Made by a program: the position numbers and the translations under genes. DNA of 64,000 nucleotides from Actinopolyspora alba. GTDB lineage: Bacteria > Actinomycetota > Actinomycetes > Mycobacteriales > Pseudonocardiaceae. The notes under the pieces were generated by a model that worked only from the letters and a program-made list of their open reading frames with translations, was not told the DNA's origin and made no database searches. The stretch covers positions 538,740-602,739 of the forward strand of contig NZ_FOMZ01000001.1 in the NCBI RefSeq assembly GCF_900112765.1, in the 5' to 3' direction. Positions 44,734 through 60,955 of the stretch are shown here, piece after piece (the first letter of the stretch is position 1; every line of letters begins with the position of its first letter).

Positions 44734-45357
44734 TCAGATCACCCCCATCCGTAACGCGTAGGCCACCGCGTGCGGTCTGTTTCGCAGTTGAAGACGACCG
44801 GTGAGTTCGGAGACCACTCGCTTGACCGCTCGTTCGGAGAAGTTCAGCTCCTCGGCGATCTCGGAAGTGTCGAACCCGTGCGACATCAACCGCAGCACAT
44901 CGATTTCCCTGGGAGTGAGCCCGGACGCGTGCAGCCCGTTCGGCGCGAGAACCTCGCGCTGCAGTTGTTCGAAGTGCCGCAGCAGCTCGCCGAGCATCGG
45001 CGAGGGCAGCAGTCCGCCCCCCGCTGCGGCGGTGCGAACGGCCTCCTCGATTCGCTCCCGGGAGGCGGCCTCCCGCGGCAGCACCGCGGCCACGTTGCAC
45101 TCGACGGCCGGAACCAGGTCGTTGCGCGTGATCTCGCAGAGAATCATGATGACGGGCGCGTTGAGGGTGGCCTTGATCTTGCGCAACGTCGAGGCCACGT
45201 CGACGGTCAGTCGCTCCGCCACCACCACGACGACGTCCACCGGGGTGTGCTCCTCGGCGGGCACCACCTCGATGTTCGGCCGACTGTCCAGGTAATGGCT
45301 GACAGCCATGCTGGTCAACGGGTCCACGGTCCGCACGAACACTCGAATCGAGTTCAC
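44734..45357 (-). CDS. LuxR-family regulator with degenerate receiver domain
   Basis: 207 residues from GTG 45357 behind GGAGG. The N-terminal 120 residues follow a receiver fold (MNSIRVFVRTVDPLTSMAVS, then PVDVVVVVAERLT), but neither the acidic pocket nor a phosphoacceptor Asp is present. The C-terminal LuxR HTH (about 145-207) is intact: LTPREIDVLRLMSHGFDTSE, NFSERAVKRVVSELTGRLQL. No kinase gene is adjacent. It lies about 1.4 kb beyond the last gene of the terpenoid cluster and is a candidate pathway regulator; this link is positional only. Confidence 0.82.
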   Translation of the reverse strand: MNSIRVFVRTVDPLTSMAVSHYLDSRPNIEVVPAEEHTPVDVVVVVAERLTVDVASTLRKIKATLNAPVIMILCEITRNDLVPAVECNVAAVLPREAASRERIEEAVRTAAAGGGLLPSPMLGELLRHFEQLQREVLAPNGLHASGLTPREIDVLRLMSHGFDTSEIAEELNFSERAVKRVVSELTGRLQLRNRPHAVAYALRMGVI

Positions 45358-46286
45358 CGGGGCCTCCTAGCACCGCGAGCAATCGTCTGGGATGAAGTGT
45401 GTGAACGGCAAATTCGGCAGTGCTCGGCACGGACCGTCAGCACGGGCGCGGACAGCGACTCGAACCGGAACCTCCGGAGAACCGGGCGGAAGCAAGCGAA
45501 ATGTGAAGCGAACAACAATGAATCTCTACCGACGGAAACACAATCTCTACTCCTGTTCCGGGATCCTCCGAGTGAGCAGCGGGTTCGCCGGGCGCATCCG
45601 CATCAATCGCGTTTCGACCGATACGGTCAACGAGTTCTGCGACACCGACATAAAGGTATACACCGATTTCGTTACCGGTCAAGGTAAACACGAGTAACCA
45701 CACGGACGGACAGGGCGCTCCGACTTCCCCATTCCCGTCGATACGCAGGTCACGGCCAGTACGGCAGCAGGCCCACACTCGACGCGCATCGACCCGAAGC
45801 ACGCGTGGGCAATGCCCGGGAACGCACCGCACTCCCCACTCACGATGTTAAGAAACTCTCCCGCAGGACGATCTGTGATAAATTTCGGCGCGTCACGGAT
45901 AAACGTATCAGAATATAGGCATAAGAGACGCCCGCGACTTCTTGGCACACAAGTGACAAGTTCTCGCCGCGCCGCACCGGTAAAGCCGAATCGACGAACA
46001 AGGAAAATTCTGGGCACGCACGTTCGCGACCGCGAAAAACAACGGAACGCGACCAAAATATGAATAGCATTCTAAGAATGGATCCGGAAAGCCGCTGAAC
46101 TGTGCTTCCACGCGACATGCCGCGAACCGGTTCGATCACGAAACGTGACAGCCGGCGCTGGTCGCCGCCCACCGAACCGTTGAGCACCGAACGTGTCAGG
46201 GCCTCGAGATGAATCGGTGGTTGACCGGAGACGACGACATCGTGCGGGGCCGTCACGGCTCCGGGAACACCTGGGCCGTCAGCGGT
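45358..46286. other. Long low-GC intergenic region
   Basis: About 930 bases. From 45500 to 46100 base composition is clearly AT-richer than the neighbours. Short frames on both strands (for example one ending at 45697 on plus) have no leader or known domain. It contains the 3' side of the terpenoid cluster and the promoter side of the LuxR gene. It may be a remnant of acquired DNA. Confidence 0.5.
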
Positions 46287-47018
46287 TCACGCGCCCACCA
46301 GGCTCCGGTACCCGCGGAGGCTCCACGGGTTTCTGCCCTCCAGGCGCATCCTGCGGTACAGCAGGACGATGTAGACGATGTCGAGCACCACCATCGTCGG
46401 TATCAGCACCAGGAAGAGCACCCGGGAGGGATAGAGCAGGAACCCGGTCAGTCCGGCGGAGAACGTACCGAGGAACTTCGCCACGGCGATGTGGAGGGAC
46501 TGCCCCACGGAGGAGTTCCGACGACGCAGCATCAGGATGAACGCGGCGCTCAGGAACACGTTGATGATCATGCCGATGTACATGCCGTCACAGTCGTGGA
46601 ACTCGTTGGCACCGGCCATCACCACCAGCGACGACCACACCGCCAGCCCCCCGAGCAGCGCTCGGAACGTGAACCGGGACAGGTGGGGGTAGTCCCTCGG
46701 ACCGTAACGGAACGCCTGGTAGAACAGGAACACGTTGATCACCGCCCAGACCGTGTTGATCTGCCGCTGGCTCGGTGTCTGCTCCAGGATGAAACCGAGG
46801 CTGAACTCCCAGGAGAAGTTCACCGCCACCATGTAGGCGGGAACGGCGATCCGGCCGTCCAGGATCGTCTGCCGGATGGACAGCAGGTAGGTCAACAACC
46901 AGCCCACCACGGTCGGCCCCGCGACCGACCAGAAGAGCCGACGTGGGATGTCGACGGCCTCGATCGTGACCGGAGCGACGTCCGACATCGGGACCAGGAA
47001 CGGCGGCAGCCAGCTCAA
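46287..47018 (-). CDS. Integral membrane terpene cyclase (Pyr4/PaxB/DmtA-like)
   Basis: 243 residues with seven membrane segments. I use TTG 47018 (weak AAAGG leader); ATG 46988 is the alternative. The hallmark NFSWEF (Asn67, Trp70, Glu71) near the end of the second helix and a late Asp (Asp213, VVLDIVY) match the Glu and Asp that protonate the substrate in Pyr4-type cyclases. Length and topology are those of fungal meroterpenoid/indole-diterpene cyclases and bacterial drimentine-type cyclases. These enzymes open a terminal epoxide or protonate an olefin of a prenylated acceptor and close the rings. Last gene of the minus-strand cluster. Confidence 0.78.
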   Translation of the reverse strand: MSWLPPFLVPMSDVAPVTIEAVDIPRRLFWSVAGPTVVGWLLTYLLSIRQTILDGRIAVPAYMVAVNFSWEFSLGFILEQTPSQRQINTVWAVINVFLFYQAFRYGPRDYPHLSRFTFRALLGGLAVWSSLVVMAGANEFHDCDGMYIGMIINVFLSAAFILMLRRRNSSVGQSLHIAVAKFLGTFSAGLTGFLLYPSRVLFLVLIPTMVVLDIVYIVLLYRRMRLEGRNPWSLRGYRSLVGA

Positions 47019-47076
47019 GTCGATTCCGTACCTTTCTCGAACAGCGCGAACAACGAACCCGACGGCATCGCGAACC

Positions 47077-47134
47077 GACTACCCGATGTCGGGTCTCCCG
47101 CGGCGAGAGCCGTGCGAGAGGCTCCGCCGAGTGA
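47077..47134. repeat. Partial copy of dispersed repeat B
   Basis: GACTACCCGATGTCGGGTCT and GCGAGAGCCGTGCGAGAGG match one half of the 58.7-kb copy. It lies between the cyclase and flavin oxygenase genes. Confidence 0.6.
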
Positions 47135-47165
47135 CCCCCCGAGAACCGAGATCCACCACACCTCA

Positions 47166-48359
47166 CTACAGCCCGGGAACGATCGAATCCAGCCCGAAGA
47201 ACGAACCCCCGTAGAGCTCGTGGCCGACCTGCACGTTGAGCATGGCGTGCCTGGCCGCTGTGTTGGCATCGCGCCAGTACTGCTGCATCGGGCTCGCCTC
47301 GGCGAAGGCCGAGGCGCCGTAGGCCCACATCAACTCGTCCAGTGCCCCGGTTATCAGCTTCACCGAGTGCGCCGCGTCGCCGCGAATCCTGCGCAGCTCG
47401 TTCTCGGGGACCGAGACCGCCCGCTCGGCGGCCGTGTCGATCGCGTCGGCCGAGCGGCGCACGTGCATCTCGGCGGCGTCGATGTTCAGCGCCGTGCGCC
47501 CCAGTTCGGAGACGAACGTCGGGGAGTCGGGCTGGCTGGCGTAGGTGCTCGGCGGGATCTTGCGCGACGGTGCCTTCTCGATCACGCAGGAGAGCGCGGC
47601 CTGTCCGATGCCGAGCACGACGGAGGCGCAGATGACCGCCATCGCCGCCACCGCCGGGGACCGGAACAGCGGGTTCAGGTCGAGGTCGGTGCTGTGCTGC
47701 CGCCCCAGCTGCACCTCGGCGGGGATCACCCGGTGCTCCGGGACGTGGACTTCCTCGGCCACGACGGTGTGACTTCCGGTGGCCCGCATGCCGACGGTGA
47801 ACCAGGTGTCGGCGATGCCGACATCGCCGACGGGAACGAGCACGGACACCGGACGCACGGTCTCACCGCCGCTGTCGAGTTCCTTCGCGCTCAGGATCGC
47901 CCAGTCGTCGTGCAGGATGCCCGAGGCGTAGGGCCACTCGCCGGTCAGCGAGTACCCACCTTCGGACGGAACCAGCTCACCGGCGGCGACGAAGATCGAG
48001 GCGAGCTTCGCGCCGGGGTTGTCGCCGAACACCTCGTCCTGGGCCCGCACGGGGAACCTGCTCGCGAACAGGTTGGATCCGTTGATGTTGTTGACGACCC
48101 ACGACGTGGCGGGACAGTAGTGCGAGAGCGCCTTGGTCACCTCGCTCAGGGTGCGCACTCCCGTCTCCAGCCCGCCGTAGCGGCGGGCCGTCCAGAGTCT
48201 GCCCACCCGGGACTCGTCGATCGCCCGAACGGTGTCGTCCGGAAGCCTGCGCTCGCGGTCGCCGGAGGCAACGCCGTCCGCCAGTACCGGGCCGATCGAG
48301 CGGACCCGTTCCAGCAGCTCGTCGCGCGGCTCCTTGGTGTCCTCGGTCGGACTCGTCAT
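47166..48359 (-). CDS. Group-D flavin-dependent oxygenase (acyl-CoA dehydrogenase fold; XiaF/HsaA-like)
   Basis: 397 residues from ATG 48359 after GGAG. Acyl-CoA dehydrogenase fold used as a reduced-flavin monooxygenase: N-terminal helices (LPDDTVRAIDESRVGRLWTA), flavin region (YSLTGEWPYASGILHDDWAI, TGSHTVVAEEVHVPEHRV) and the C-terminal helical bundle with YWRDANTAARHAMLN. There is no acyl-CoA catalytic Glu motif. Relatives include HsaA, HpaB-type hydroxylases and XiaF, an indole oxygenase of xiamycin pathways. Such enzymes need a separate flavin reductase, which I do not see in the window. Likely hydroxylates the aromatic (perhaps indole) part of the product. Confidence 0.82.
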   Translation of the reverse strand: MTSPTEDTKEPRDELLERVRSIGPVLADGVASGDRERRLPDDTVRAIDESRVGRLWTARRYGGLETGVRTLSEVTKALSHYCPATSWVVNNINGSNLFASRFPVRAQDEVFGDNPGAKLASIFVAAGELVPSEGGYSLTGEWPYASGILHDDWAILSAKELDSGGETVRPVSVLVPVGDVGIADTWFTVGMRATGSHTVVAEEVHVPEHRVIPAEVQLGRQHSTDLDLNPLFRSPAVAAMAVICASVVLGIGQAALSCVIEKAPSRKIPPSTYASQPDSPTFVSELGRTALNIDAAEMHVRRSADAIDTAAERAVSVPENELRRIRGDAAHSVKLITGALDELMWAYGASAFAEASPMQQYWRDANTAARHAMLNVQVGHELYGGSFFGLDSIVPGL

Positions 48360-48430
48360 ATGGCTGTCTCCAGGAGTGCGTTGTTGTCGATTCGCGCCGT
48401 ACCCGCGCGTCGGAGCCACGCCGCGGGTTC

Positions 48431-48482
48431 GTGCGGTGGGGTCGTGCGGTGGGGTCGTGCGGTGGGGTCGTGCAGTGGGGTC
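48431..48482. repeat. 13-bp tandem repeat, four units
   Basis: GTGCGGTGGGGTC repeated four times head to tail (last unit GTGCAGTGGGGTC) in the gap between the epoxide-hydrolase-like gene and the flavin oxygenase gene. Prone to copy-number change. Confidence 0.85.
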
Positions 48483-48510
48483 GCGACGAGGAGGGAGTAC
48501 CCTCCAGGAC

Positions 48511-48900
48511 TCACCAGTCGGGCGGATCGGATATCAGGTTGGTGATGTCGAAGTAGTCGCGCCACGCGCTGATGCCGCCGTCCCTGATCTCGAACGCGGC
48601 CATGACCTTCAGGTTCAGCGCGATGGGACTGCCGTCGGAACGGAGCATGTCCTCGACCCGTTCGACCAGCACGGTCTCGCCGGTGACGACGATGTGCCGG
48701 AACCGCACCCTCAGCTGGGCGAAGTCGGCGGGCATCATCTCCAGGATCCGCCGTTTTCCGTGACAGACCGGGGAACCGGGGTTCTCCCAGACGCAGTCCT
48801 CGGTCAGGAAACGCTCCACGGCGGAACGGACGTCGGCCGGGGAAGGCCCCATTCGGCCCAGGAACTCACGAACCAGACTCCGGTGTGCTGCGGCGGACAC
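48511..48900 (-). CDS. SnoaL/limonene-1,2-epoxide-hydrolase-like protein
   Basis: 129 residues from GTG 48900 behind GGGAGC, two bases after the aromatic hydroxylase stop, so clearly coupled. The cone-shaped alpha+beta fold is indicated by VRSAVERFLTEDCVWENPG, VLVERVEDMLRSDG and FEIRDGGISAWRDYFDI. The last segment is typical of limonene epoxide hydrolase and polyether epoxide cyclases. In the LEH triad Arg-x-Asp the sequence is RVED, so the middle acid is Glu or shifted; the last Asp (WRDYFD) is present. In this cluster it may steer or hydrolyse an epoxide intermediate. It could also be a non-catalytic SnoaL-like helper. Confidence 0.78.
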   Translation of the reverse strand: MSAAAHRSLVREFLGRMGPSPADVRSAVERFLTEDCVWENPGSPVCHGKRRILEMMPADFAQLRVRFRHIVVTGETVLVERVEDMLRSDGSPIALNLKVMAAFEIRDGGISAWRDYFDITNLISDPPDW

Positions 48901-48902
48901 GA

Positions 48903-50714
48903 TCAGCTCCCTGCCCCGCTCGTATCGGTACGGCCGAGGATCCGCCCGAGTGCCTCGTGCAGCCGCGCCTCGCCGTCGACGCCGTCCTCGGTACTACGCC
49001 AGGCGACGTGGTTGTCGGGACGCACCAGCACCGCGCCCCCGGCGCCGATGTCCGCCGTGTCCCGCCAGGTGCCGTCGACGTCGGTGTGACCGGTGCTCCC
49101 CTCCTCCACAACGGGGTCGTGCTCCCCGATGGGGACGACGGTCAGGGACACGCCGTGGTCCTCGGCCACGCGCTCGGCCGCCGCCGTCCAGGAACCGGAC
49201 TGTTCACCGGTGAACAGTACGAAACCACCACCGGCTCCGACGAGGTCGTGCGTGGACACGTCTTCCTCCCGAGCGAGTCGGGCGTGCGGCAGCCGGTGCC
49301 CCGGCCTGGTCGTCGGCCGGTGCCCACACCCCATGGGATCCCGATCCGGCGGGGGTGTCCCGTCGGGAACCAGCGCGCCCTCGTCGTAGGCGAATCCGAT
49401 CTCGATGTCGTGCGCCTGGTACTCCACCCGCTGCGTGGCGAAGACCTCCTCGGCCCTCGCCCGCCGCGTCCGCCCCATCGGGGTGTCGGAGAACAACGCG
49501 CGAATGTTGGCGCGGGCCGATTCCAGCGGCTGCCCCGGCAGCAGGCCGAGTCCCGCGTGGGCGACCGCGTGATTGCGGAAGGCGTACATCGCCCAGCTCA
49601 CGTTGCGGCGTGCCACCGGGAGCCGCTCCGCCTCGTAGGTGTCCAGCAACCGTGGATCAGCGGTACCGTCCAGCACCGCGCCGAGTTTCCAGGCGAGATT
49701 GTGCCCGTCCTGGATCGCGGAGTTCAGCCCGAGACCGGTGGCGGGTGGCTGGCGGTGGGCGGCGTCGCCCGCGAGGAAGACGTCGTCGACACGGAAGGTG
49801 CTCGCCACGACCCCCTCGGGCCGGTAGTCGCTCACCCGGTGTATCTCCAGGTCCAGCTCGGGAAGCTTGAGCAACTGCCGGATCCTGTCGATCATGGCCT
49901 CCTCGCCGAGGTCCAACTCGCTGTCGGGAGCCGGGTGGAAGTGCAACGCCCACTCCCGGCACTTCAGTCCCCACTCCGGCCCGAGGGCGACCATTCCGTA
50001 GCGGGAGACGGGACCGCCGTCCATACCGACGAAATTGGTCATCAGCACCGAGTCACCGGGCCACCACTCCGCGAGGTCCGCGCTGAAGTGAACGGACACG
50101 ACGTCGAGCGCGCCGCCCTCACCCGTCATCTCGACACCGAGCTCGTCGCCGATGGCGCGCCCGCCGTCGGCCGCGACGAGGTAGCGGGCGCGAACGGTGC
50201 AGCGGTGTCCGGTGGAACTCTCGGTCACCACGGCGGTCACGCCGGAGTCGTCCCTGGTGAACTCCTCCATCACGTGGCCGAACAGCACGCTCCCGGGTGC
50301 CCGGTCGACGGCGTGCCGGTGCAGCAGCGGTTCGAGCCGGTGCTGCGGGAAGTTGGTCGAGGGGCAGGGGCTGTCGGCCAGGTACGGTCCCGCCGTCGAG
50401 CCACCGCCGAACGCGTCCATCCGGTGCAGATCCAACGCGTCCAGCTCTCCGTCGCCCGCCAGCGAGGTACGCCAGACGACCTCGCTCATGTTCTCCAGCG
50501 GTGCGCCGCCCCGGTAGATCTCCGCCGCGAGGCCGTGCTGGCGGAAGATCTCCATCGTTCGCTGGTTCAGGTAGTGGGCTCGTGGCAGCGCCGAGGGCGA
50601 CTCGCGGCGTTCCACGAGAAGGTGCTCGACACCGAGATCGGACAGGAAGATCGATGTGGACAGACCACAGCCACCTCCCCCCACGACGAGCACCGGGATT
50701 TCGTGGTCGGGCAT
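48903..50714 (-). CDS. FAD-dependent aromatic hydroxylase (TfdB/PheA class)
   Basis: 603 residues from ATG 50714 six bases after GGAG. FAD motif VLVVGGGGCGLSTSIFLSDL, ARYLVAADGGRAIGDELG (DG motif) and DDVFLAGDAAHRQPPATGLGLNSAIQD (GD motif). A C-terminal thioredoxin-like phenol-hydroxylase domain (about 480-600) follows. It matches 2,4-dichlorophenol/phenol 2-monooxygenases that also decorate polyketides and other aromatics. In the cluster it is a candidate for ring hydroxylation or Baeyer-Villiger-type oxidation. It is followed by the LEH-like gene with a two-base gap. Confidence 0.88.
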   Translation of the reverse strand: MPDHEIPVLVVGGGGCGLSTSIFLSDLGVEHLLVERRESPSALPRAHYLNQRTMEIFRQHGLAAEIYRGGAPLENMSEVVWRTSLAGDGELDALDLHRMDAFGGGSTAGPYLADSPCPSTNFPQHRLEPLLHRHAVDRAPGSVLFGHVMEEFTRDDSGVTAVVTESSTGHRCTVRARYLVAADGGRAIGDELGVEMTGEGGALDVVSVHFSADLAEWWPGDSVLMTNFVGMDGGPVSRYGMVALGPEWGLKCREWALHFHPAPDSELDLGEEAMIDRIRQLLKLPELDLEIHRVSDYRPEGVVASTFRVDDVFLAGDAAHRQPPATGLGLNSAIQDGHNLAWKLGAVLDGTADPRLLDTYEAERLPVARRNVSWAMYAFRNHAVAHAGLGLLPGQPLESARANIRALFSDTPMGRTRRARAEEVFATQRVEYQAHDIEIGFAYDEGALVPDGTPPPDRDPMGCGHRPTTRPGHRLPHARLAREEDVSTHDLVGAGGGFVLFTGEQSGSWTAAAERVAEDHGVSLTVVPIGEHDPVVEEGSTGHTDVDGTWRDTADIGAGGAVLVRPDNHVAWRSTEDGVDGEARLHEALGRILGRTDTSGAGS

Positions 50715-50773
50715 CGATTACTCCAGCGACGATCGGATTCGGGAAAACGACTCGCGTGCTCGCGGTGCGGGAA

Positions 50774-50815
50774 GCGGCCCGTCGGGGTGAGCGGCCCGTC
50801 GGGGTGAGCGGCCCG
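50774..50815. repeat. 17-bp tandem repeat, 2.5 units
   Basis: GCGGCCCGTCGGGGTGA occurs twice in succession, then GCGGCCCG, in the gap after the ferredoxin gene. A start ATG overlapping the ferredoxin stop (ATGA at about 50853) opens a frame MSDVLVAGGFGAAG that breaks into repeat-coded sequence; it may be the stub of a lost gene. Confidence 0.6.
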
Positions 50816-50849
50816 GCCGCCCCGAAGCCCCCGGCCACCAGCACATCGC

Positions 50850-51065
50850 TCATGACCGCCGCTCGGCCTCCCGCACCGTGATGGCGGCCGATGGGCAGAG
50901 CAGCGCGGCCTCGCGGACCCCTTCGTGCTCGTGTTCGGCGGGGTTCTCGTCCAGCAGCACCACCACTCCGTCCTCGTCACGCTGGTCGAACACCTCGGGA
51001 GCGGCCGAGACGCAGTGGCCCGCTGCCACGCAGCGGGACTGGTCGACGTCGATGTTCACTGTCAT
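50850..51065 (-). CDS. 3Fe-4S ferredoxin of P450 type
   Basis: 71 residues from ATG 51065 after GAGGAGG. Cys12, Cys18 and the third Cys in LLCPSAAI bind a [3Fe-4S] cluster (C-x5-C ... CP pattern); the residue between the first pair that would make it 4Fe-4S is not Cys. The acidic surface (DQRDEDGVVVLLDENPAEHEHEG) is typical for docking to a P450. Seventeen bases downstream of the P450 gene, so it is its dedicated electron donor. A ferredoxin reductase is not encoded nearby. Confidence 0.92.
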   Translation of the reverse strand: MTVNIDVDQSRCVAAGHCVSAAPEVFDQRDEDGVVVLLDENPAEHEHEGVREAALLCPSAAITVREAERRS

Positions 51066-51082
51066 GACCTCCTCAGAAGAAT

Positions 51083-52279
51083 TCACCAGGTGACCGGCAG
51101 GTTGCGAACCCCGAACACCAGCGCCTTGGTCCGGTACTCGATGTCCTCCTCGGGACAGGCGAGCCGCAGTTCGGGGAACCTGTTGAACAGCGCGGGCAGC
51201 GCGATGCGCAGCTCCATGCGCGCCAGCTGCTGACCCAGGCACTGGTGGGCGCCGTAACCGAAGGTGACGTGGTGCTTCGGGGGGTTGCGCACGTCCAGCT
51301 CGTCCAGGTCGCGCTCCGCCGCCTCCGGCAGATCGCGGTTGGCGGCCAGCAGCGAGATCACGACTCGTTCGCCTTCGCCGATCTTCTGGTCGCGTACCGC
51401 CATGTCCTCCCCGGCCTGCCGCGGCATCGCGGTGGCCGGGGAGCAGTAGCGCAGCAGCTCCTCGACCGCTCCGTCGACCGCCTCGGGCTCGTCGCGCAAC
51501 ACCGCGAGCTGGTCCGGATTGCGCAGCAGCAGCGTGGTGCTCGCGGAGAGCATGCTGGCCGTGGTCTCGTGCCCGGCGATCAGCAGCATGTTGCCGATCC
51601 CGACCAGCTCGTCGTCGGTCAGTTCGCCGCCGTGCTCGCGCACCACGCTTCCCAGCAGGTTGTCGCCGGGGCTCTCGCGGTGCGACGCGATGAGCGTGGC
51701 CATGTACTCGTCCATCTCGGCCAGGTTCCGGATCTGCGTCTCGCGGCTGGTGTTGACGTCCAGTCCGATTTGGGCGCGGTGCTGGAAGTCCGCGCGGTCC
51801 GCGTAGGGGACTCCGAGCAGTTCGCAGATCACCAGCGTGGGGATGGGGGTGCTGAACAGCCGCACGAGGTCGGCCCCGGGTCCGGCCCGCTCCACCTCGT
51901 CCAGCCGCTCCGCGACGATCCGCTCGATCAGCGGCCGCAGCGAGCGCACCCGCTTGACGGTGAAGGCTCCCGTGAGCATGCGCCGCAGCCGGGAGTGGTC
52001 GGCACCGTTGTAGTTGAGCAGGTTGCCCGGCTGGTTGAGCATGGTCCGCGGCGCGTCGGGATCGAAGACGAATCCCATCCGCAGCCTGGTGTCGCTGAGC
52101 GCGTTCTTGGCGTCCTCGTAGCGGGTGATCGTGGCCGCCTCGAACTCGTCCAGCAGCGGACTGGGCACCATGATCCGCGGTAACTCCTCCGAGCGCTGCA
52201 TCTCGTACAGCTCGTCGGCCGGGGTGAAGGGACACCCTTCCGAACGCGCGGCGATGGGTAGTGGTTTGGGTTCGCTCAT
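51083..52279 (-). CDS. Cytochrome P450 (CYP105-like)
   Basis: 398 residues from ATG 52279 behind GAGAGGGGAAG. Signatures: I-helix IAGHETTASM (oxygen activation), the ExxR equivalent VEELLRYCSP and heme loop FGYGAHQCLGQQLARMEL with the axial Cys. N-terminus IMVPSPLLDEFEAATITRYED and the LNYNGADHSRLRRMLTGAFT B/C-helix block resemble bacterial class-I P450s of secondary metabolism. It works with the ferredoxin downstream. Probably a late oxidative step on the terpenoid or indole. Confidence 0.93.
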   Translation of the reverse strand: MSEPKPLPIAARSEGCPFTPADELYEMQRSEELPRIMVPSPLLDEFEAATITRYEDAKNALSDTRLRMGFVFDPDAPRTMLNQPGNLLNYNGADHSRLRRMLTGAFTVKRVRSLRPLIERIVAERLDEVERAGPGADLVRLFSTPIPTLVICELLGVPYADRADFQHRAQIGLDVNTSRETQIRNLAEMDEYMATLIASHRESPGDNLLGSVVREHGGELTDDELVGIGNMLLIAGHETTASMLSASTTLLLRNPDQLAVLRDEPEAVDGAVEELLRYCSPATAMPRQAGEDMAVRDQKIGEGERVVISLLAANRDLPEAAERDLDELDVRNPPKHHVTFGYGAHQCLGQQLARMELRIALPALFNRFPELRLACPEEDIEYRTKALVFGVRNLPVTW

Positions 52280-52412
52280 GGGGTCTTCCCCTCTCGGTGA
52301 GGTGGTGAGCAACGGACTTCTCCACCGGGTGCGGGGCCCGGGAAGGTCGGCGCGGGGTCCCGGCCCGGCGAATTCCCGGGTCGAGCGGATTCCCCGCCCC
52401 GCGAGGGCTCGA

Positions 52413-53468
52413 TCAGAACCTCCGGTCGGTGAGGAAGGCGGCCATTTCCAGCAGTTCCTCGCGCACGGACGGCGAAAGGTCGTCGTGCTCCAGGCATTCG
52501 CGTGCGGCCACCACGCGGCGCGCCAGCTCCTCGTGGGCCCACTCGCGCCCACCGGCGCGTTCCACCAGCTCGGCGACGCGGCGCACCTGCCGCTCTTCCA
52601 ACGGCTCGGAACCGTGGTACAGCGCCGAGAGCTCGTCCGAACCGCTCTCGTTCAGCGCGAACACCAGCGGCAGTGACTTCTTGCGCACCCTGATGTCGGC
52701 CAGCACCTGCTTGCCGGTGCGTTCCGGATCGCCCCAGATCCCGAGCAGATCGTCGACCAGTTGGAACGCGACTCCGAGGTGCTCACCGAACCGGGCGAGG
52801 CGGTGCAGCGGTTCCGCGTCCGCGCCGAGCAGTTCGGCACCGATCGAGCAAGCGCAGGAAAGCAGCGCACCGGTCTTGTCGCCCGCCATGCGCAGGCACT
52901 CGTCCAGTGTCACGTCGTCCCGCCGCTCGAACTCGACGTCGGCGGCCTGACCGCTGATCATGCGCCGCGTCGCCGTCGTCAGGGAGTTCGCGGCGCTTCC
53001 GGCACCCGGTTTCCCGCTGTCGAGCAGCACTCCGGTAGCCGCCGCCAGCAGCGCGTCACCGGCCAGGATGGCCCGCGGTACCCCGAACAGGGTCCACGCG
53101 GTCGCCCTGCCGCGGCGGGCCGAGTCGTTGTCCATGATGTCGTCGTGCAGCAGCGAGAAGTTGTGCACCAGCTCCACGGCCACCGCCGCGGCCACGCCGT
53201 CCGCCGGATCGGCGCCCGCGCTTCGCGCCGACAGCAGGACCAGGGAGGGGCGTACGAGTTTGCCGCTCCACTCCTCGGTGGGCCTGCCCTGTTCGTCGGA
53301 CCATCCGTGGTGGTAACCGGCGACCAGCTCCGTGTCGTGGGACAGGTAGTCGCGCACCGCCGCGCGCAGCGCGGGGCGAACCAGCGCGATGCCCGCGTCG
53401 AGCGCCGCGGGAAATCGTTCCGCGGGGGCTCGTTCCGTGGGGGAGCGTTCCGCGTGCGTCGTGCTCAT
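52413..53468 (-). CDS. Polyprenyl synthetase (GGPP/FPP synthase)
   Basis: 351 residues from ATG 53468 (GGTGG leader). Standard trans-prenyltransferase: GKLVRPSL with the IPP-binding Lys/Arg, first aspartate motif LLHDDIMDND, second motif FQLVDDLLGIWGD and KKSLPLVFAL. The small residues before the first motif (HNFSLL) suggest a chain longer than C10, most likely C20; the exact product length cannot be set by eye. Supplies the prenyl diphosphate for the cluster. About 160 bases after the epoxidase gene. Confidence 0.9.
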   Translation of the reverse strand: MSTTHAERSPTERAPAERFPAALDAGIALVRPALRAAVRDYLSHDTELVAGYHHGWSDEQGRPTEEWSGKLVRPSLVLLSARSAGADPADGVAAAVAVELVHNFSLLHDDIMDNDSARRGRATAWTLFGVPRAILAGDALLAAATGVLLDSGKPGAGSAANSLTTATRRMISGQAADVEFERRDDVTLDECLRMAGDKTGALLSCACSIGAELLGADAEPLHRLARFGEHLGVAFQLVDDLLGIWGDPERTGKQVLADIRVRKKSLPLVFALNESGSDELSALYHGSEPLEERQVRRVAELVERAGGREWAHEELARRVVAARECLEHDDLSPSVREELLEMAAFLTDRRF

Positions 53469-53630
53469 GGGACCACCACCGTGTCGGCGTGTGCTGTTGT
53501 TCCGCCGCACCCCGCTCGGGGCGGAGCGGCCGGTCGGTCCCCCTGGGTTGTCCGGTACCACCCGGCGCCGGGGCGGGCCGGTGACCTGTCGCGTGACATG
53601 GCGTTGCGCCCTCACTCTCTGCGACGACCG

Positions 53631-55019
53631 TCAATCGCGGGTCGATAGCTCATCGGGAGTCGGGATCGTGGGGTGGAACAGCGAACGAAGCAGTACCCGC
53701 CGGGAGGTCAGCAGACTGCTGGGCGGTGCCAGCAGGAAGAGGACGTCGCGAAACGCGCGGCACACCACCGGATCGCCGGGCACCCGCTCGCGGACCCGTT
53801 CGAGGTACCAGTCGCGGATCCCGTCGGCGGGGCCGGCGCGCAGCGCGTTGCCCTCCGCGCCGGGCATGGGACTGTCCGCGCCGGTGGCGACCTCCCAGGC
53901 CCCGCGTGCCGAGGTCAGCACCGCCCGCTGCGCACGCCGCGTCGTGAGTCGGCTCCCGCTCGCGGCCAGCTCGCGGGACAGGGCGACGGCGTTCATGGCC
54001 GCGACCGAGATCCCCTGGCCGTAGACGGGGTTGAACGCGCAGAGGGCGTCACCGACGACGAGGAAACCGCTCGGGAGACCGGCGGCGCGGTCGTAGCGAC
54101 GACGCCTGTTCGCGGTGTGGCGGTACCCCACGGGGCGGGTGAGCGGTTCCGCCTGTCGCAGCCACCGGTGGGGAGCCGGGTGCGGAAGCCCGCCGGCGAA
54201 CTCCACGAAACCGTCCGGATCGGTGGGAGGTGGGTTCGCGCGGGGGCCGGACAGCGTCACCATCATGCGGTCGTCCTCCGCGGGCAGCAGGATGGCTCCC
54301 AGCGGCTGCGCGGCGTCGGGGACGATGTAGAAGCCGCTCACCCGGTCGATCGGCTCGCTGCTGTCGGTGTGGAAGGAGCACGTGGCGTATGCCCTCCCGG
54401 TAGCCAGCACCTCTTCCGGCGGTGCGGTGACGCCGAGAGCGTCCAGCCACTCGGGAGCTCCGCTCGCCCGCCCGGTGGCGTCGACCACCAGGTCGGCGCT
54501 GATTTCCCGCTGTTCGCCGAGTTCGGATCCTCGCTCGCGGAAAGCGGCTCCCGCGACGCGCTCGGAGTCGCCGAGCAGACCGGTCACCCGGGTCGAGGTC
54601 CTGACGTCGATGTGGGGGTGACGTTCCAGCACGCGGCGGCGGATCAGGTGCTCCAGCAGCGGTCGGGACGCGGTGACCACGGGTTCCGAGGGGTGCCGCC
54701 GTGACACCCACTGTCCGGCCTGCCACACCCCGAGGTCGGCCGGGACCGACAGCGACGGGGCCCCTTTCCGGTGCAACAGCCGCGAGAATTCGGGAAGCAG
54801 CTCGTCCAGCGCCCTGATGCCGCTGGTGAGCAGCACGTGGGTGTGCGGGGACTGCGGGACTCCACTTCGGGCTACGGGCTCGTCCGGATAGTGATCGCGT
54901 TCCAGAACGGTGACCCGTTCGGCGTGCCCCGCGAGGGCGTGGGCGGTCAGTAGCCCGGCCACGCTTCCACCGAGCACCGCGACGTGCCCGAGCGAACGGG
55001 TTGTGGCTGGTGCGCGCAA
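53631..55019 (-). CDS. FAD-dependent epoxidase/monooxygenase
   Basis: About 462 residues. I choose TTG 55019 behind GAGGAG, which leaves a 12-residue N-terminus as in the family; GTG 55040, overlapping the upstream dioxygenase gene, is also possible. FAD fold VAVLGGSVAGLLTAHALAGH, the family tag GVPQSPHTHVLLTSGIRALDELLP (cited in part), ADLVVDATGRASGAPEWL and FLVVGDALCAFNPVYGQGISVAA. This group contains single-component flavin enzymes that epoxidise terminal prenyl double bonds in terpenoid clusters, the task done by PaxM in paxilline pathways. The product would be the substrate of the membrane cyclase. Confidence 0.82.
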   Translation of the reverse strand: MRAPATTRSLGHVAVLGGSVAGLLTAHALAGHAERVTVLERDHYPDEPVARSGVPQSPHTHVLLTSGIRALDELLPEFSRLLHRKGAPSLSVPADLGVWQAGQWVSRRHPSEPVVTASRPLLEHLIRRRVLERHPHIDVRTSTRVTGLLGDSERVAGAAFRERGSELGEQREISADLVVDATGRASGAPEWLDALGVTAPPEEVLATGRAYATCSFHTDSSEPIDRVSGFYIVPDAAQPLGAILLPAEDDRMMVTLSGPRANPPPTDPDGFVEFAGGLPHPAPHRWLRQAEPLTRPVGYRHTANRRRRYDRAAGLPSGFLVVGDALCAFNPVYGQGISVAAMNAVALSRELAASGSRLTTRRAQRAVLTSARGAWEVATGADSPMPGAEGNALRAGPADGIRDWYLERVRERVPGDPVVCRAFRDVLFLLAPPSSLLTSRRVLLRSLFHPTIPTPDELSTRD

Positions 55020-55033
55020 TTGTCCGGTTCTCC

Positions 55034-55663
55034 TCAACACCCGGGTGGCTCCGTGGTTCCGCCGTCGTCGCCCACCGCGCTTTCGGCGGCCGCTTCGTCG
55101 ATCCGCCGCCGCAGGTAGTCGACCCCGGAGGTCTCCCCGGTGCCTTCCAGATCACCGAGCATGTGCTCCACGAGCTTGAGGTGGGTGTATCGCCAGCTCC
55201 GGGTCGCCGCGCGGAGCCGGACGAGTTCGCGTTCCGCGAGCTCGATTCCGCCCGATTCGACACCACCGGCGGCGCGCCGCTGGGCGAGCCGGTGGGTGAT
55301 CTCGAACAATTCGTGGAACTGCTTGGACTGCAGACCGCTGGCCGTTCCGAACCTGTCCCGGAACAGCTGGAAGTGTTCGGGTTTCAGGGAGTTCCGCAGC
55401 AGCACGAGGTGGCTTTCCAGCGTCTCGACCACACGTGCCGCGCGGTTGGCCCGGTGGTCGGAGCACGCGCTGTCGCAGAGTCCGGCCTCGATGTGGCGCA
55501 GATCGGTCAACGCCTGGCTGAGCAGCGTCTCGGACGCCTGGTGCACGACGATGAACAGCCGTTCGCCGTCGTGGATCTCGCGATCGTCGCGGGGAGTGAG
55601 CGGTTGCTGCAGCGACAACAGCTGCTTCAGTCGCAGGTACTGGGAATAGGTCATGGTGGTCAC
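55034..55663 (-). CDS. Tryptophan 2,3-dioxygenase-like heme protein (short form)
   Basis: 209 residues from GTG 55663, nine bases after GAGGAG (ATG 55654 is an alternative). Usual TDOs have about 280 residues. Conserved TDO blocks remain: YSQYLRLKQLLSLQQP, LFIVVHQASETLLSQAL (distal His), FRDRFGTASGLQSKQFHELFE (substrate-carboxylate Arg), SWRYTHLKLVEHMLGDLEGTGETSG (heme-ligand His, GTG). It could cleave the indole of tryptophan to N-formylkynurenine. Alternatively, like the MarE protein of maremycin biosynthesis, it could oxygenate a modified indole without cleavage. Position inside the cluster favours a pathway role. Confidence 0.82.
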   Translation of the reverse strand: MTTMTYSQYLRLKQLLSLQQPLTPRDDREIHDGERLFIVVHQASETLLSQALTDLRHIEAGLCDSACSDHRANRAARVVETLESHLVLLRNSLKPEHFQLFRDRFGTASGLQSKQFHELFEITHRLAQRRAAGGVESGGIELAERELVRLRAATRSWRYTHLKLVEHMLGDLEGTGETSGVDYLRRRIDEAAAESAVGDDGGTTEPPGC

Positions 55664-55692
55664 CCGAACCATCTCCTCTGCGTGTCGGAGCG

Positions 55693-56682
55693 CTACACCA
55701 AACGACCCGTGGCGGTGAGTTCCTCCAGCGCGTCGCGGTGTTCGCCGGGAGGCAGTGACTCCAGTGCCCGCGCCGCCATCCGGGCGTACCTGCGCGACAT
55801 CTCGCGGGCCGAGTCCACCGCGCCGTGGGACCGCACCAGGTCCCGCATGGCCTCGTAGCGCTGCTCGACCGGTGAGGTGGTGTCGGCGAGGATCTCCTCG
55901 ATGAGCAGCTTCTCGTCCCGAGACGCTCGGCGATGCGCGAGCAGCACCGGAAGCGTGGGTCTGCCGTTGCGGATGTCCGAAGTGCTGGGTTTTCCCGCTC
56001 TGGTGCCGTCGTAGGCCATCAGATCGTCCCGAATCTGATAACCGACCCCCAGAAAATTGCTGTAATTGTGCAACGCCTCCAGGTATTCCTCGTCCGCACC
56101 GCTCAACGTCGCGCCGAGACCGCAAGCCATCCATAACAGCGCGCCACTCTTGTCCTTGATCATGTCCCGATAAGTGGCGGTGGAACAGACGGTGCGCCCC
56201 ATTCTGATTTCCTTTACGGCGGCGTCACCGATACGAAGTCCGGTTCGCGCCAGAACGTCCAGTCCCCGCGCGACGCGTGATTCGGGAACTCCCGCGCGCC
56301 CACAATCCGACAGCGCGGCGAATCCCTGGAAGAACAGCCCGTCGCCCCCGACGATCGCGGTGGGGTGACCGAACGTCTCGTACGCGGCGGACTTGCTGCG
56401 TCGCTCGGCGTCCTCGTCCACGATGTCGTCGTGCATCATGGCCCCGACCTGCACGCATTCCACCGCTACCGCGGCGGGAAGCACCGGAGCCAGCTCGCCG
56501 CCCACGGCGAGACTGGACCGGATCAGGAGCCAGGGTCCCATCATCTTGCCGAACGGCACCAGTCCGTAGCGCACCACTTCGTCGAGATCGGACACGTCCT
56601 CGGGCCAGCGGTACTCGACCTCGGCACGGACCAGTCTGGCTATTTCGGGATCGGCAACCTGTGGGACATCGATCTCCGTCAT
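55693..56682 (-). CDS. Divergent polyprenyl synthetase, possible indole prenyltransferase
   Basis: 329 residues from ATG 56682. It has the all-helical prenyltransferase fold, with the first Asp motif MHDDIVDED (Asp85, Asp86, Asp89) and a second motif QIRDDLMAYDG. But the IPP-binding GKxxRP loop reads GKMMGPW (Lys46 kept, Arg replaced by Gly49). A homoallylic IPP phosphate is therefore probably not bound, and a non-phosphorylated acceptor such as an indole is plausible, as in the PaxC/IdtC branch of this family. Clear sequence difference from the second synthase at 52413 fits a division of labour. First gene of the cluster, with a leaderless-type promoter. Confidence 0.78.
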   Translation of the reverse strand: MTEIDVPQVADPEIARLVRAEVEYRWPEDVSDLDEVVRYGLVPFGKMMGPWLLIRSSLAVGGELAPVLPAAVAVECVQVGAMMHDDIVDEDAERRSKSAAYETFGHPTAIVGGDGLFFQGFAALSDCGRAGVPESRVARGLDVLARTGLRIGDAAVKEIRMGRTVCSTATYRDMIKDKSGALLWMACGLGATLSGADEEYLEALHNYSNFLGVGYQIRDDLMAYDGTRAGKPSTSDIRNGRPTLPVLLAHRRASRDEKLLIEEILADTTSPVEQRYEAMRDLVRSHGAVDSAREMSRRYARMAARALESLPPGEHRDALEELTATGRLV

Positions 56683-56904: not shown

Positions 56905-58365
56905 TCAGCGGGGTTCCAATCGGATCCGGTGGATTTCACCCATGATCGCGAACCCGCACAACGCCAGCAGCCCGTGGGCACCGACGAACCACAGGGCGGC
57001 GTCGAAGGAACCGGTAACCGAGAGGGTGTAGCCGATGACGACCGGCGTGACGATGCCCGCCGCGTTGCCCACGGCGTTCATCGTGCCACCGACGAAACTC
57101 GCCGCCCGCGGTGGTGCTATGTCGGTGGTGATGGCCCAGCCGAGCGCTCCGAGCCCCTTGCCGAAGAACGCGATCGCCAGGATGGTCAGGATCAGCCCGG
57201 TGCTGTCGGTGAGGGTGCAGAGCACCAACGGCAGTACCAGCGACATACCGATGACCGAGGGCGTCTTGCGTGCCGCGGTCAGCGAGAAACCCCGGCGGAT
57301 CAACCGGTCGGAGACCCAGCCCCCGAGCAGCCCGCCGAGCAGCCCGGACAACGCGGGGATCGCGGCGGTGAGCCCCGTCTCCAGCAGGGACAGCCCACGG
57401 GCGCGCACGAGGTAGACGGGCAACCAGGTGATGAAGAAGTAGGTCAGCGCGTTGATCGCGTACTGGCTGACGTAGACCCCCCACAGCGGACGAGCCGACA
57501 GGATCCGGCGGACGGTCCACCGGTCCAGCCGTGCGGGACGCGGTTCCGCTCCACCGGTGCCGGGTGAGGGCCGATCCACCGAGTCCACCGCTGCCGGAAC
57601 GCCGCCCTCGGCCGTTCGAGCCGGCTCGGCGGTGTCGTCGAGTCCGGTCAGTACGTCGTCGAGTCCGACCAGGGCGCCACCGGATTCCATGTGGTCCAGT
57701 TCGGCGTGGGACACACGGGGATGGCGCGTGGGACTCCGCATCCAACGGATCCAGATCATCGCCGGCACGACGCCGCAGGCACCGAGCAGCACGAACACCC
57801 AGCGCCAGCCGAACTCGTGGGTGACCCACCCCATGACGGGTGCGAACATCGCGGTGGCCAGGTACTGCGCCGAGGTGAACACCGCGGTGGCCCAACCGCG
57901 CTCGGCGGTGGGGAACCACATCGTCACCACCCGAGCGTTGGCGGGCAGCGCGGGGGACTCGAACGCACCGAGCAGCAACCGCAGCAGGAAGACCGCGGCC
58001 AACGCCACCAGCACCGGTGTGGTCATCAACCCGACGAGGCCGATCGCCGCGGTGGCGAGCGTCCACAGCACGATGCTCGCGGTGTAGACCCCGCGCGCCC
58101 CGAACCGGTCCAGCAGAATACCGCCGGGCAGCTGCGCGAGTACGTAGGACCAACCGAACGCGGAGAAGACGTAGCCCAGTTGAACCGTCGAGAACCCCAG
58201 GTCGTCGGCCATGTCGTCACCGGTGATCGACAGGCTGCCCCGCCCGGCGTAGAGGATCACGGTGATGACGAACAGCAGCCCGAGCACGAGGAGACGAGTG
58301 GGGACCCGTGGATTTCGTCCGCGCTGGGAAACCTGGTTCGCCGGACTCGTCGTGGTCTCGGGCAT
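56905..58365 (-). CDS. Major facilitator transporter, anion:cation symporter type
   Basis: 486 residues, 12 predicted membrane segments. First block NRDMADDLGFSTVQLGYVFS-like (ITGDDMADDLGFSTVQLGY) and FGWSYVLAQLPGGILLDRFGAR (MFS motif A region) match sugar-acid/anion symporters of the ACS family (GudP-like). A 55-residue acidic loop splits the two halves. It lies upstream of the terpenoid genes, separated by 220 bases. It may export the product, or it may be an unrelated uptake system; family membership favours uptake. Confidence 0.88.
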   Translation of the reverse strand: MPETTTSPANQVSQRGRNPRVPTRLLVLGLLFVITVILYAGRGSLSITGDDMADDLGFSTVQLGYVFSAFGWSYVLAQLPGGILLDRFGARGVYTASIVLWTLATAAIGLVGLMTTPVLVALAAVFLLRLLLGAFESPALPANARVVTMWFPTAERGWATAVFTSAQYLATAMFAPVMGWVTHEFGWRWVFVLLGACGVVPAMIWIRWMRSPTRHPRVSHAELDHMESGGALVGLDDVLTGLDDTAEPARTAEGGVPAAVDSVDRPSPGTGGAEPRPARLDRWTVRRILSARPLWGVYVSQYAINALTYFFITWLPVYLVRARGLSLLETGLTAAIPALSGLLGGLLGGWVSDRLIRRGFSLTAARKTPSVIGMSLVLPLVLCTLTDSTGLILTILAIAFFGKGLGALGWAITTDIAPPRAASFVGGTMNAVGNAAGIVTPVVIGYTLSVTGSFDAALWFVGAHGLLALCGFAIMGEIHRIRLEPR

Positions 58366-58876: not shown

Positions 58877-59641
58877 TTATCCGGCTTCGGCGAGGTTGTC
58901 GGTTATGGCTCCGACCGTTTCGAGCAGCGTACGTGTCACCGTTCTGAGGTTCGTGCGGCTCACCGTCCCGGCGACGGCGACGGCGGCCGACGGAGCCTCA
59001 CCGCCGAGGAACACCGGGGCGGCCATCTCCACCAGCTCAGGGTTGTGCTCGCTCCTGAGGCAGGACACGCCGGTACGTCCGATCAGCTCGAACTCCCGCT
59101 TGATCCTGCTCGGATTCGTCATCGCCCCCCGTACGCACACGGCGGAGGATGCCTCGTGGAACTCCACCCAGTCGCGCGAACTACCGGCGAGCAACAACCT
59201 GCCCACGGCGGAGCGGTGCACCGGGACGGGGTGTCGAAAGGTGCGGGCGATCCGGGAGTCCTCCCGGTTGTAGAGCGTTCCCGCGTATCGCACCCGTGCC
59301 CCGGAGAGCATTCCGACGCTCACGACGCAGTGGACTCGCCGGAACAGGTCGATCAGGTGGGGCGTGATCGCCTCGCTGAATTCCTCCACCCTGGATTTGC
59401 CTCGGACCGCGGACAAGCGGGAAAAATAGTCGCCGAGCTCGTACGCCTTGGTCTCCAGGCGCACCACCGCACCGATATCCGTCAGAACTCGCATCAGTCG
59501 GTGCAGGGTCGACTTGGGGAAATCAACTCGTTGGGAAATCTCGGACAGGGTCAGCGGCTTCGACGAACCCGATATTTCTTCGAGAACGACGAAAGCCTTC
59601 CGCAAGGGTTCGCCCGGGCTCTCGGTCATATCCCTGCGCAT
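58877..59641 (-). CDS. IclR-family regulator
   Basis: 254 residues from ATG 59641 (ATG 59629 is possible too; upstream codons are not conserved). Winged helix at about 12-75 (LRKAFVVLEEISGSSKPLTL, FPKSTLHRLMRVLTDIGAVV), then the GAF-like effector domain ([60 protein letters not shown]). Divergent from ispH across 300 bases that contain an inverted repeat. Likely regulates itself and either the transporter or the terpenoid/MEP genes. The ligand is unknown. Confidence 0.85.
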   Translation of the reverse strand: MRRDMTESPGEPLRKAFVVLEEISGSSKPLTLSEISQRVDFPKSTLHRLMRVLTDIGAVVRLETKAYELGDYFSRLSAVRGKSRVEEFSEAITPHLIDLFRRVHCVVSVGMLSGARVRYAGTLYNREDSRIARTFRHPVPVHRSAVGRLLLAGSSRDWVEFHEASSAVCVRGAMTNPSRIKREFELIGRTGVSCLRSEHNPELVEMAAPVFLGGEAPSAAVAVAGTVSRTNLRTVTRTLLETVGAITDNLAEAG

Positions 59642-59740
59642 AGTCTCGATCGTCCCGAGAATCCGGGCGGTGCGGACGGGCTCCGGACAGCGTGCGCGAG
59701 TTTCAACGCGATACCTCCACTGCTTTCCTCCCCTTCCCGC

Positions 59741-59758
59741 CACACTCTTTCTAGTGTG
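59741..59758. promoter_or_regulatory. Operator-like inverted repeat between IclR gene and ispH
   Basis: CACACT (59741-59746), six bases, AGTGTG (59753-59758) in the divergent gap. Size and place suit an IclR-type site; short, so chance is not excluded. Confidence 0.4.
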
Positions 59759-59944: not shown

Positions 59945-60955
59945 ATGGCACCCAAGAGTTCGGGCGAGCACACCGCGGACGACGACACGCGTCGGATCCT
60001 GCTCGCCAGTCCAAGGTCCTTTTGCGCCGGAGTCGAACGAGCCATCGAGATCGTCGAACGAGCTCTGCGGTCATACACGCCCCCGATCTACGTCCGCAAA
60101 GAGATCGTGCACAACTCCTACGTCGTCGATGACCTCGCGAGCAAGGGCGCCGTCTTCGTGGAGGAGCTCGACGAGGTTCCCGACGGGGCGACCCTGGTCT
60201 TCTCCGCGCACGGCGTCTCCCCTGCCGTGCGGGAGGAGGCGGACCGCAAGAACCTGGACGTCATCGACGGCACGTGCCCACTGGTCAGCAAGGTGCACGC
60301 GAAAGCGCGCCGCTTCGCCGCCCGCGGTGACACCGTGGTTCTCTTCGGGCACTCCGGGCACGAGGAGATCGAGGGAACCTACGGCGAGGCACCCGAGTCC
60401 ACGGTGCTCGTCGAGAGCGCGGACGAGGTGGCCGACCTGTCCGTTCCGGACCCGGATCGGGTCTCCTACCTGACCCAGACCACGCTCGCCGTGGACGAGA
60501 CCAATGATTTCGTGCGGGAACTGCGCGAGAAGTATCCGAACGTGAGCGAACCGGCCTCGGAGGACATCTGCTACGCCACGACCAACCGGCAGCACGCGCT
60601 CAACGAGGTCATCGCGGAGTCCGACCTGGTCCTGGTGGTCGGCTCGACGAACTCGTCCAACTCGGTACGGCTGGTCGAGATATCCCGACGGCAGGGAACG
60701 CCGGCGGAGCTCATCGACGGCGCGGAGGACATCACCGCCGAGTGGCTCGACGGGGTGCGAACCATCGGCGTGACAGCGGGCGCGTCGGCACCGCCGAAGC
60801 TGGTCGACGAGGTCGTAGAGGCACTGCGCGGTTTCGGACCCGCGACCGTCGCGGAACGCGAGTTCACCCACGAGACGATGCACTTCGAGCTCCCTTCGGT
60901 GCTGCGCGGCGCCGGGGAAGGCGCGGCGGAACGACCCGCGGGTAACGGCGGCTGA
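59945..60955 (+). CDS. ispH: 4-Hydroxy-3-methylbut-2-enyl diphosphate reductase (IspH)
   Basis: Last MEP-pathway enzyme, giving IPP and DMAPP; 336 residues from ATG 59945. The three cluster-binding cysteines are in [28 protein letters not shown] and [12 protein letters not shown]. The catalytic region [28 protein letters not shown] and [10 protein letters not shown] complete the family. First of a run ispH-dxs-ispG, a grouping not usual for housekeeping MEP genes in actinobacteria. These are therefore probably extra copies serving the adjacent terpenoid cluster. Confidence 0.95.

What the first reader, a model, noticed from the sequence alone, without database searches (positions are those of the whole stretch)
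46287..56682. Bacterial gene cluster with the enzyme logic of fungal indole-diterpene (paxilline-type) assembly
Seen: one minus-strand run encodes two different polyprenyl synthetases, an FAD epoxidase-type flavoprotein, a seven-helix Pyr4/PaxB-like cyclase with the NFSWEF motif, a P450 with ferredoxin, a tryptophan dioxygenase homologue, a group-D flavin oxygenase, an aromatic hydroxylase and an epoxide-hydrolase-like protein. Known: paxilline biosynthesis uses PaxG (GGPP synthase), PaxC (polyprenyl-synthetase-like indole prenyltransferase), PaxM (FAD epoxidase) and PaxB (membrane cyclase). Inference: the cluster makes an oxidised prenyl-indole (probably diterpene) that may not be known.
Basis: partly seen in the sequence, partly recalled or inferred. 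Interest (0 to 1): 0.93.

Follow-up and report, generated by a model that had tools for sequence, protein, structure and literature searches.

The report
Xiamycin-type indole-sesquiterpene gene cluster
This stretch holds, in the same order as in related actinomycete genomes, ten genes that very likely make a xiamycin-like compound (a known kind of antimicrobial built from indole and a 15-carbon terpene) rather than a new fungal-style indole-diterpene; the odd one out is a small tryptophan-dioxygenase-like protein to which no role could be assigned here.

Summary
The "probably diterpene" and "may not be known" parts are not. The group-D flavin oxygenase matches XiaF, the indole hydroxylase/cyclase of xiamycin biosynthesis, over its full length (598 bits). 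Of 20 loci fetched with the cyclase, 13 hold all ten genes and 12 of these have the window's order, among them Streptomyces olivaceus, a species with a reported xiamycin A producer. Best reading: a xiamycin-type indolosesquiterpene cluster in an Actinopolyspora-like bacterium, a new member of a known kind. It extends to IclR, IspH and DXS genes on one side and a LuxR-type regulator on the other. Two side results: a shortened tryptophan-dioxygenase-like protein lies beside the indole-prenyltransferase candidate in 15 of 15 loci holding that gene, moves with it in three rearranged clusters, and has no role in the papers I could read; and a clean deletion of about 12 kb removed the operon in A. 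righensis.

The parts
44734..45357 (-). LuxR-type regulator, 207 aa
   Evidence: PF00196 47.8 bits; found in 19 of 20 loci L012-L031, absent from L014
46287..47018 (-). Pyr4-type transmembrane terpene cyclase (XiaE/XiaH-type), 243 aa, TTG start
   Evidence: PF25129 75.9 bits; 59-70% identical to 18 non-Actinopolyspora loci; 7 helices, pLDDT 89.5
47166..48359 (-). XiaF orthologue: group-D flavin oxygenase / indole hydroxylase
   Evidence: XiaF PDB 5lvu, 598 bits over 398 residues; active-site residues
48511..48900 (-). limonene-epoxide-hydrolase-like protein (XiaG-type), role unknown
   Evidence: PF07858 59.4 bits
48903..50714 (-). group-A FAD oxygenase (XiaH/XiaK-type, predicted N-hydroxylase)
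   Evidence: PF01494 304.5 bits; position as xiaH
50850..51065 (-). ferredoxin
   Evidence: PF13370 51.7 bits
51083..52285 (-). cytochrome P450, Cys-ligand motif present
   Evidence: PF00067 98.8 bits; motif
52413..53471 (-). polyprenyl diphosphate synthase, predicted FPP synthase
   Evidence: PF00348 192 bits; HNFSL(L/V)HDDIMD in 13 of 13 loci with the gene
53631..55040 (-). FAD epoxidase
   Evidence: PDB Lsd18 240.8 bits, MonCI 230 bits
55034..55654 (-). shortened tryptophan-dioxygenase-like protein, role unassigned
   Evidence: PF03301 78.3 bits; fold matches TDO and MarE; beside the prenyltransferase in 15 of 15 loci
55693..56682 (-). indole prenyltransferase candidate of polyprenyl-synthetase fold
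   Evidence: PDB 9v4g 'prenyltransferase' 510.6 bits full length
56905..58365 (-). MFS transporter, membership uncertain
   Evidence: PF07690 166.9 bits; seen only in L012 of 20 loci
58877..59743 (-). IclR-type regulator
   Evidence: PF01614/PF09339; in 12 of 20 loci and 4 of 10 genus genomes
59945..60955 (+). IspH, second copy in the genome
   Evidence: TIGR00216 314.6 bits; other copy at C32:237360; in 12 of 20 loci
61107..62915 (+). DXS, second copy in the genome
   Evidence: TIGR00204 572.5 bits; 95% or more identical copy in only 4 of 10 genus genomes; in 14 of 20 loci

Best explanation
The ten genes at 46287-56682 match, in content and order, loci of other actinomycetes that carry a XiaF orthologue, and they very likely make a xiamycin-type indolosesquiterpene by the published xia pathway. 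Shown here: gene families, order, conservation, the full-length XiaF match. Inferred from the published pathway: extra DXS and IspH raise isoprenoid supply; one polyprenyl synthase makes farnesyl diphosphate; the other (a prenyltransferase) joins it to indole-3-glycerol phosphate to give 3-farnesylindole; the FAD enzyme epoxidises the chain; the Pyr4-type cyclase opens the epoxide and closes the decalin (preindosespene); the P450 with ferredoxin oxidises a methyl to a carboxyl (indosespene); the XiaF-like enzyme hydroxylates indole C3, which triggers closure to the carbazole (xiamycin); the second FAD enzyme N-hydroxylates, which leads to dimers. The roles of the dioxygenase-like and the LEH-like proteins are not known.
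For: XiaF match 598 bits over 398 residues, next PDB relative 161 bits. Of five active-site residues named in the XiaF paper four are kept and Ile237 is Val. Of 20 loci fetched with the cyclase, 13 hold all ten genes and 12 of those have exactly this order. The published xiaE-J functions that I could read (cyclase, flavin oxygenase, LEH homologue, FAD oxygenase, P450) fall in this order. S. olivaceus NRRL B-3009 (L022) has all ten in order at 53-70% identity; strain SCSIO T05 of that species makes xiamycin A. S. xinghaiensis, reported to make xiamycin analogues, has a cyclase 67% identical (P0015). DXS recurs in 14, IspH in 12 and IclR in 12 of the 20 loci.
Against: No product of this strain is known. 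The two 2012 cluster papers are not held, and apart from XiaF I had no sequence of the characterised clusters; the rest is synteny with loci whose products are mostly unknown. Chain length is by orthology only. The own genome has no PF01613 flavin reductase (control genomes 13 of 14), whereas XiaF works with a separate reductase in Streptomyces, so another kind of reductase would be needed. Seven of the 20 loci do not show all ten genes, several because the locus or contig ends; not each was followed beyond its end.
Confidence: 0.9

Rival explanations
1. A bacterial indole-diterpene (paxilline-like) cluster: the synthase makes GGPP and the cyclase works on an epoxygeranylgeranyl-indole.
For: The chain-length region HNFSLLHDDIMD does not by itself exclude a GGPP product (rule recalled); bacterial Pyr4-type cyclases acting on diterpene chains exist, such as ZigF.
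Against: XiaF orthologue and whole-run synteny with xia-type loci; the same synthase motif in the S. olivaceus locus.
Confidence: 0.05
2. A xia-type cluster whose end product differs from known xiamycins, because the dioxygenase-like protein, the LEH-like protein or strain-specific changes divert an intermediate.
For: Two proteins of the run have no assigned role in the papers read; xia-type strains are reported to make sespenine, oxiamycin and several dimers.
Against: Both genes are also in the S. olivaceus locus, so their presence alone does not predict a different product.
Confidence: 0.2
3. The genes are a catabolic (aromatic-degradation) set rather than biosynthesis, as PobA, a PcaR/PobR-like IclR regulator and an MFS transporter nearby might suggest.
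For: PobA-type enzyme at 43102-44304 and the nearest curated IclR model PcaR/PcaU/PobR at 64.6 bits, below its cut-off of 284.75.
Against: PobA is in 7 of 10 genus genomes while the cluster or its remnant is in 4; two prenyl synthetases, a Pyr4 cyclase and extra DXS and IspH fit biosynthesis.
Confidence: 0.01

Closest known systems
Xiamycin (xia) clusters of Streptomyces sp. HKI0576 and SCSIO 02999 (PMC5481743, passages; PMC10884874 and PMC10301674, passages; PMC9113183, passages)
   Same: XiaF orthologue; the functions and order of xiaE-J as far as the passages give them; FPP / indole / epoxide / membrane-cyclase logic
   Different: Other lineage (Actinopolyspora-like); a flavin reductase gene xiaP flanks the HKI0576 cluster, while this genome has no PF01613 protein
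Putative xia locus of Amycolatopsis nigrescens named in PMC5481743
   Same: Cyclase P0003 73% and dioxygenase-like protein P0068 51% identical to the window's
   Different: A putative flavin reductase gene lies beside its xiaF orthologue; none lies in the window's run
Fungal paxilline cluster (paxG/C/M/B)
   Same: Enzyme logic, from the finding and recall
   Different: Fungal, C20 chain; no XiaF-type oxygenase recalled there; no sequence comparison made here
Zigralone (zig) cluster (PMC13307353, main text read)
   Same: Bacterial Pyr4-type cyclase acting on a prenylated, tryptophan-derived core
   Different: UbiA prenyltransferase, acetolactate-synthase-like TPP enzyme, P450 epoxidase; product is a quinolone diterpenoid

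Membership tests
Xiamycin-type indolosesquiterpene cluster | XiaF-type group-D flavin oxygenase with the named active-site residues | tested here: met
   598 bits full length; Ser121, Phe123, His371, Met373 kept, Ile237 is Val
Xiamycin-type indolosesquiterpene cluster | gene set and order of the xia core | tested here: met
   same order in 12 of 20 fetched loci, all ten genes in 13 of 20; agrees with the published xiaE-J as far as read. The characterised clusters themselves were not fetched
Xiamycin-type indolosesquiterpene cluster | C15 prenyl chain | tested here: inconclusive
   synthase motif shared by 13 of 13 loci that hold the gene, including S. olivaceus L022; chain length not measurable here
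Xiamycin-type indolosesquiterpene cluster | flavin reductase partner (XiaP) | tested here: inconclusive
   no PF01613 match in the own genome; that XiaP belongs to PF01613 was not checked; the XiaF paper reports that E. coli Fre can substitute
Xiamycin-type indolosesquiterpene cluster | product is a xiamycin | not testable with these tools
   needs metabolite analysis
Pyr4-type transmembrane terpene cyclase | Pyr4-TMTC domain, seven helices, conserved acidic Glu and Asp | tested here: met
   75.9 bits, cut-off 27; 7 helices; E71 and D213 invariant in 23 of 23 rows
Fungal-type indole-diterpene cluster | GGPP-derived C20 chain | tested here: inconclusive
   orthology points to C15; no assay
Fungal-type indole-diterpene cluster | homology of the four core enzymes to PaxG/C/M/B | not tested
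   no Pax sequence was compared
Canonical tryptophan 2,3-dioxygenase | proximal and distal histidines | tested here: met
   H39 and H159 present in 40 of 40 rows; which binds haem is recalled
Canonical tryptophan 2,3-dioxygenase | Arg that binds the substrate carboxylate (role recalled) and full length | tested here: not met
   His in the window; H 18, Q 5, R 4, S 2, N 1 among 30 xia-type rows; about 206 residues against 263-285 in the three longest rows, which have Arg
Zigralone-type cluster | UbiA prenyltransferase, acetolactate-synthase-like TPP enzyme, DUF6875 | tested here: not met
   none among the 18 window proteins scanned against Pfam; the rest of the window was not scanned

The most novel reading that the evidence does not exclude
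The short dioxygenase-like haem protein is an obligate partner of the indole farnesyltransferase: a minimal TDO that has lost the amino-acid-binding arginine and oxidises or hands over a non-amino-acid indole at the first committed step, an unrecognised enzyme in a pathway thought to be complete.
Probability: 0.25. Interest if true: 0.5.

Novelty: new member of a known kind. Interest (0 to 1): 0.22.

Why it matters
It turns a striking claim (a bacterial paxilline-type diterpene cluster) into membership of a known antimicrobial family, places that family in an Actinopolyspora-like bacterium, and defines the cluster's edges by comparison with sister genomes. It also points to a conserved, unassigned dioxygenase-like protein tied to the indole prenyltransferase, which one gene deletion in a laboratory Streptomyces host could test.

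Tried and rejected
Indole-diterpene reading: set aside on the XiaF match and synteny. Solved-fold check of the cyclase: uninformative; best matches are SWEET, cystinosin and KDEL-receptor folds at E 0.02 and above. PobA (43102-44304) as part of the cluster: rejected, in 7 of 10 genus genomes, while the cluster or its remnant is in 4. The ORF at 44770-45687 (+), which I first used as a query, is an antisense frame; the gene is the LuxR-type regulator on the other strand. In some searches the two polyprenyl-synthetase queries cross-hit each other where one gene is missing or cut (L015, L018, L021); those rows are not counted. A role for the dioxygenase-like gene in print: searches (a narrow query, 0 papers) gave none that I saw; the two 2012 cluster papers are not held, so this is no claim that nothing is in print. 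A paper for PDB 9v4g: two unrelated hits. Actinopolyspora with xiamycin: 4 papers hold both words, seen as a listing only.

Full report
Observation. The minus strand from 46287 to 56682 encodes ten genes; gaps between neighbours are -7 to 159 bases with the starts I used, and most have the high third-position GC of real genes in this 68% GC window. Pfam and NCBIfam identify a Pyr4-type membrane cyclase, a group-D flavin oxygenase, a limonene-epoxide-hydrolase-like protein, a group-A FAD oxygenase, a ferredoxin, a P450, two polyprenyl synthetases, an FAD oxygenase and a tryptophan-dioxygenase homologue.

Identity. The group-D enzyme matches XiaF (PDB 5lvu) over 398 residues with 598 bits; the next PDB relative has 161 bits. 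In the XiaF paper (PMC5481743, passages) indole is placed by Ser121 and Phe123, and His371, Met373 and Ile237 are also named; the window keeps four and has Val for Ile237. XiaF hydroxylates indole C3 and so closes the carbazole ring of xiamycin. In the same passages XiaE and XiaF are the non-canonical cyclases, XiaG is a limonene-epoxide-hydrolase homologue, XiaH an FAD enzyme, XiaJ a P450, and xiaEKLM are core genes. The window has the same order; that XiaI is the ferredoxin and which gene is K, L or M is my inference from position.

Comparison with genomes. A scan of genome contigs with the cyclase alignment gave 20 loci. Thirteen hold all ten genes, 12 in exactly the window's order and one (L014) rearranged; the other seven lack some genes, several because the contig or the 10-kb flank ends. 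One of the full loci is S. olivaceus NRRL B-3009; strain SCSIO T05 of that species makes xiamycin A (PMC6835275, passages). Identity to that locus is 53-70% over the ten genes. The closest named full locus is Actinopolyspora mzabensis (L012, 88-97%), so the window's organism is probably an Actinopolyspora (inference). Of 397 genomes of the order, five hold a full-length cyclase at 66% identity or more; the same five hold the dioxygenase-like protein at 55% or more. Five further genomes have a partial (G005) or distant (29-42%) cyclase, and one (G289) a more distant dioxygenase (43%) without the cyclase.

Boundaries. The IclR gene occurs in 4 of 10 genus genomes and the cluster-type DXS (95% or more identical) in the same four, while all ten have another DXS at 51-54%. 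Three of the four have the full cyclase; the fourth (G005, like A. righensis L031) has only its C-terminal part. L031 aligns to window 60959-58690 and then directly to 46703-41164, so about 12 kb are gone: the MFS gene, nine of the ten genes and the first 105 or so codons of the cyclase. PobA is in 7 of 10 genomes and is taken as outside. The LuxR-type gene at 44734-45357 is in 19 of the 20 loci. The MFS gene is seen only in L012, so its membership is open.

Mechanism. The published route (PMC10884874, passages) is FPP plus indole-3-glycerol phosphate to 3-farnesylindole, epoxidation, cyclisation to preindosespene, oxidation to indosespene, ring closure to prexiamycin and xiamycin A, then N-hydroxylation. 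Each step has a candidate here; none was assayed. The prenyltransferase candidate matches a solved protein labelled only 'prenyltransferase' (9v4g, 510.6 bits, full length), whose source and paper I did not see. The epoxidase candidate matches Lsd18 and MonCI. The cyclase keeps Glu71 and Asp213 in 23 of 23 rows; by position these may correspond to the E60 and D214 of DmtA1 described as conserved in membrane cyclases such as Pyr4 (PMC6173783, passages). The C15 chain is inferred: the synthase motif HNFSL(L/V)HDDIMD is in 13 of 13 loci that hold the gene, but the motif alone does not settle FPP or GGPP.

The dioxygenase-like protein. With the LEH-like protein it is one of two members without a role in the passages I read. 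In all 15 loci that hold the prenyltransferase it lies beside it on the same strand, 49-98 bases apart as measured between BLAST matches, and in L014, L018 and L021, where the pair is inverted relative to the cyclase, the two stay together. Its model (pLDDT 88.1) matches tryptophan dioxygenases and MarE. The two histidines are in 40 of 40 rows, but the column that is Arg in the three longest dioxygenases is His in the window and varied in the 30 xia-type rows, four of which have Arg. A substrate without an amino-acid head is one inference from this. A double mutant that includes deletion of xmcP was made in S. olivaceus to remove xiamycins; I could not learn which gene xmcP is.

Against. No metabolite is known for this strain; the characterised clusters could not be fetched; the genome has no PF01613 flavin reductase, so the XiaF-like enzyme would need another reductase.

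Verdict. A xiamycin-type cluster, new member of a known kind; not shown to be a bacterial paxilline pathway.

Noticed in passing
L031 (Actinopolyspora righensis) 4807-4814, equivalent to window 58690 / 46703: Clean deletion of about 12 kb that removed the MFS gene, nine core genes and the start of the cyclase; IclR, IspH, DXS and LuxR genes remain.
   Followed up: yes
own genome, whole: No PF01613 flavin reductase found, although control genomes ring in 13 of 14 and the XiaF-type enzyme needs reduced flavin.
   Followed up: partly
window 55034-55654: Short TDO-like protein beside the prenyltransferase in 15 of 15 loci; no role found in the papers read.
   Followed up: partly
window 52413-53471: This polyprenyl synthase scores 405 bits against the NCBIfam family-2 encapsulin cargo prenyltransferase model (cut-off 450), its best curated model.
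   Followed up: no
L038-L041: Four distant Pyr4-type cyclase relatives (29-42% identical) in other genera of the order; their neighbourhoods were not read.
   Followed up: no
G000 C27:164304-164936 and C21:27025-27810: Two further tryptophan-dioxygenase-family genes in the same genome.
   Followed up: no
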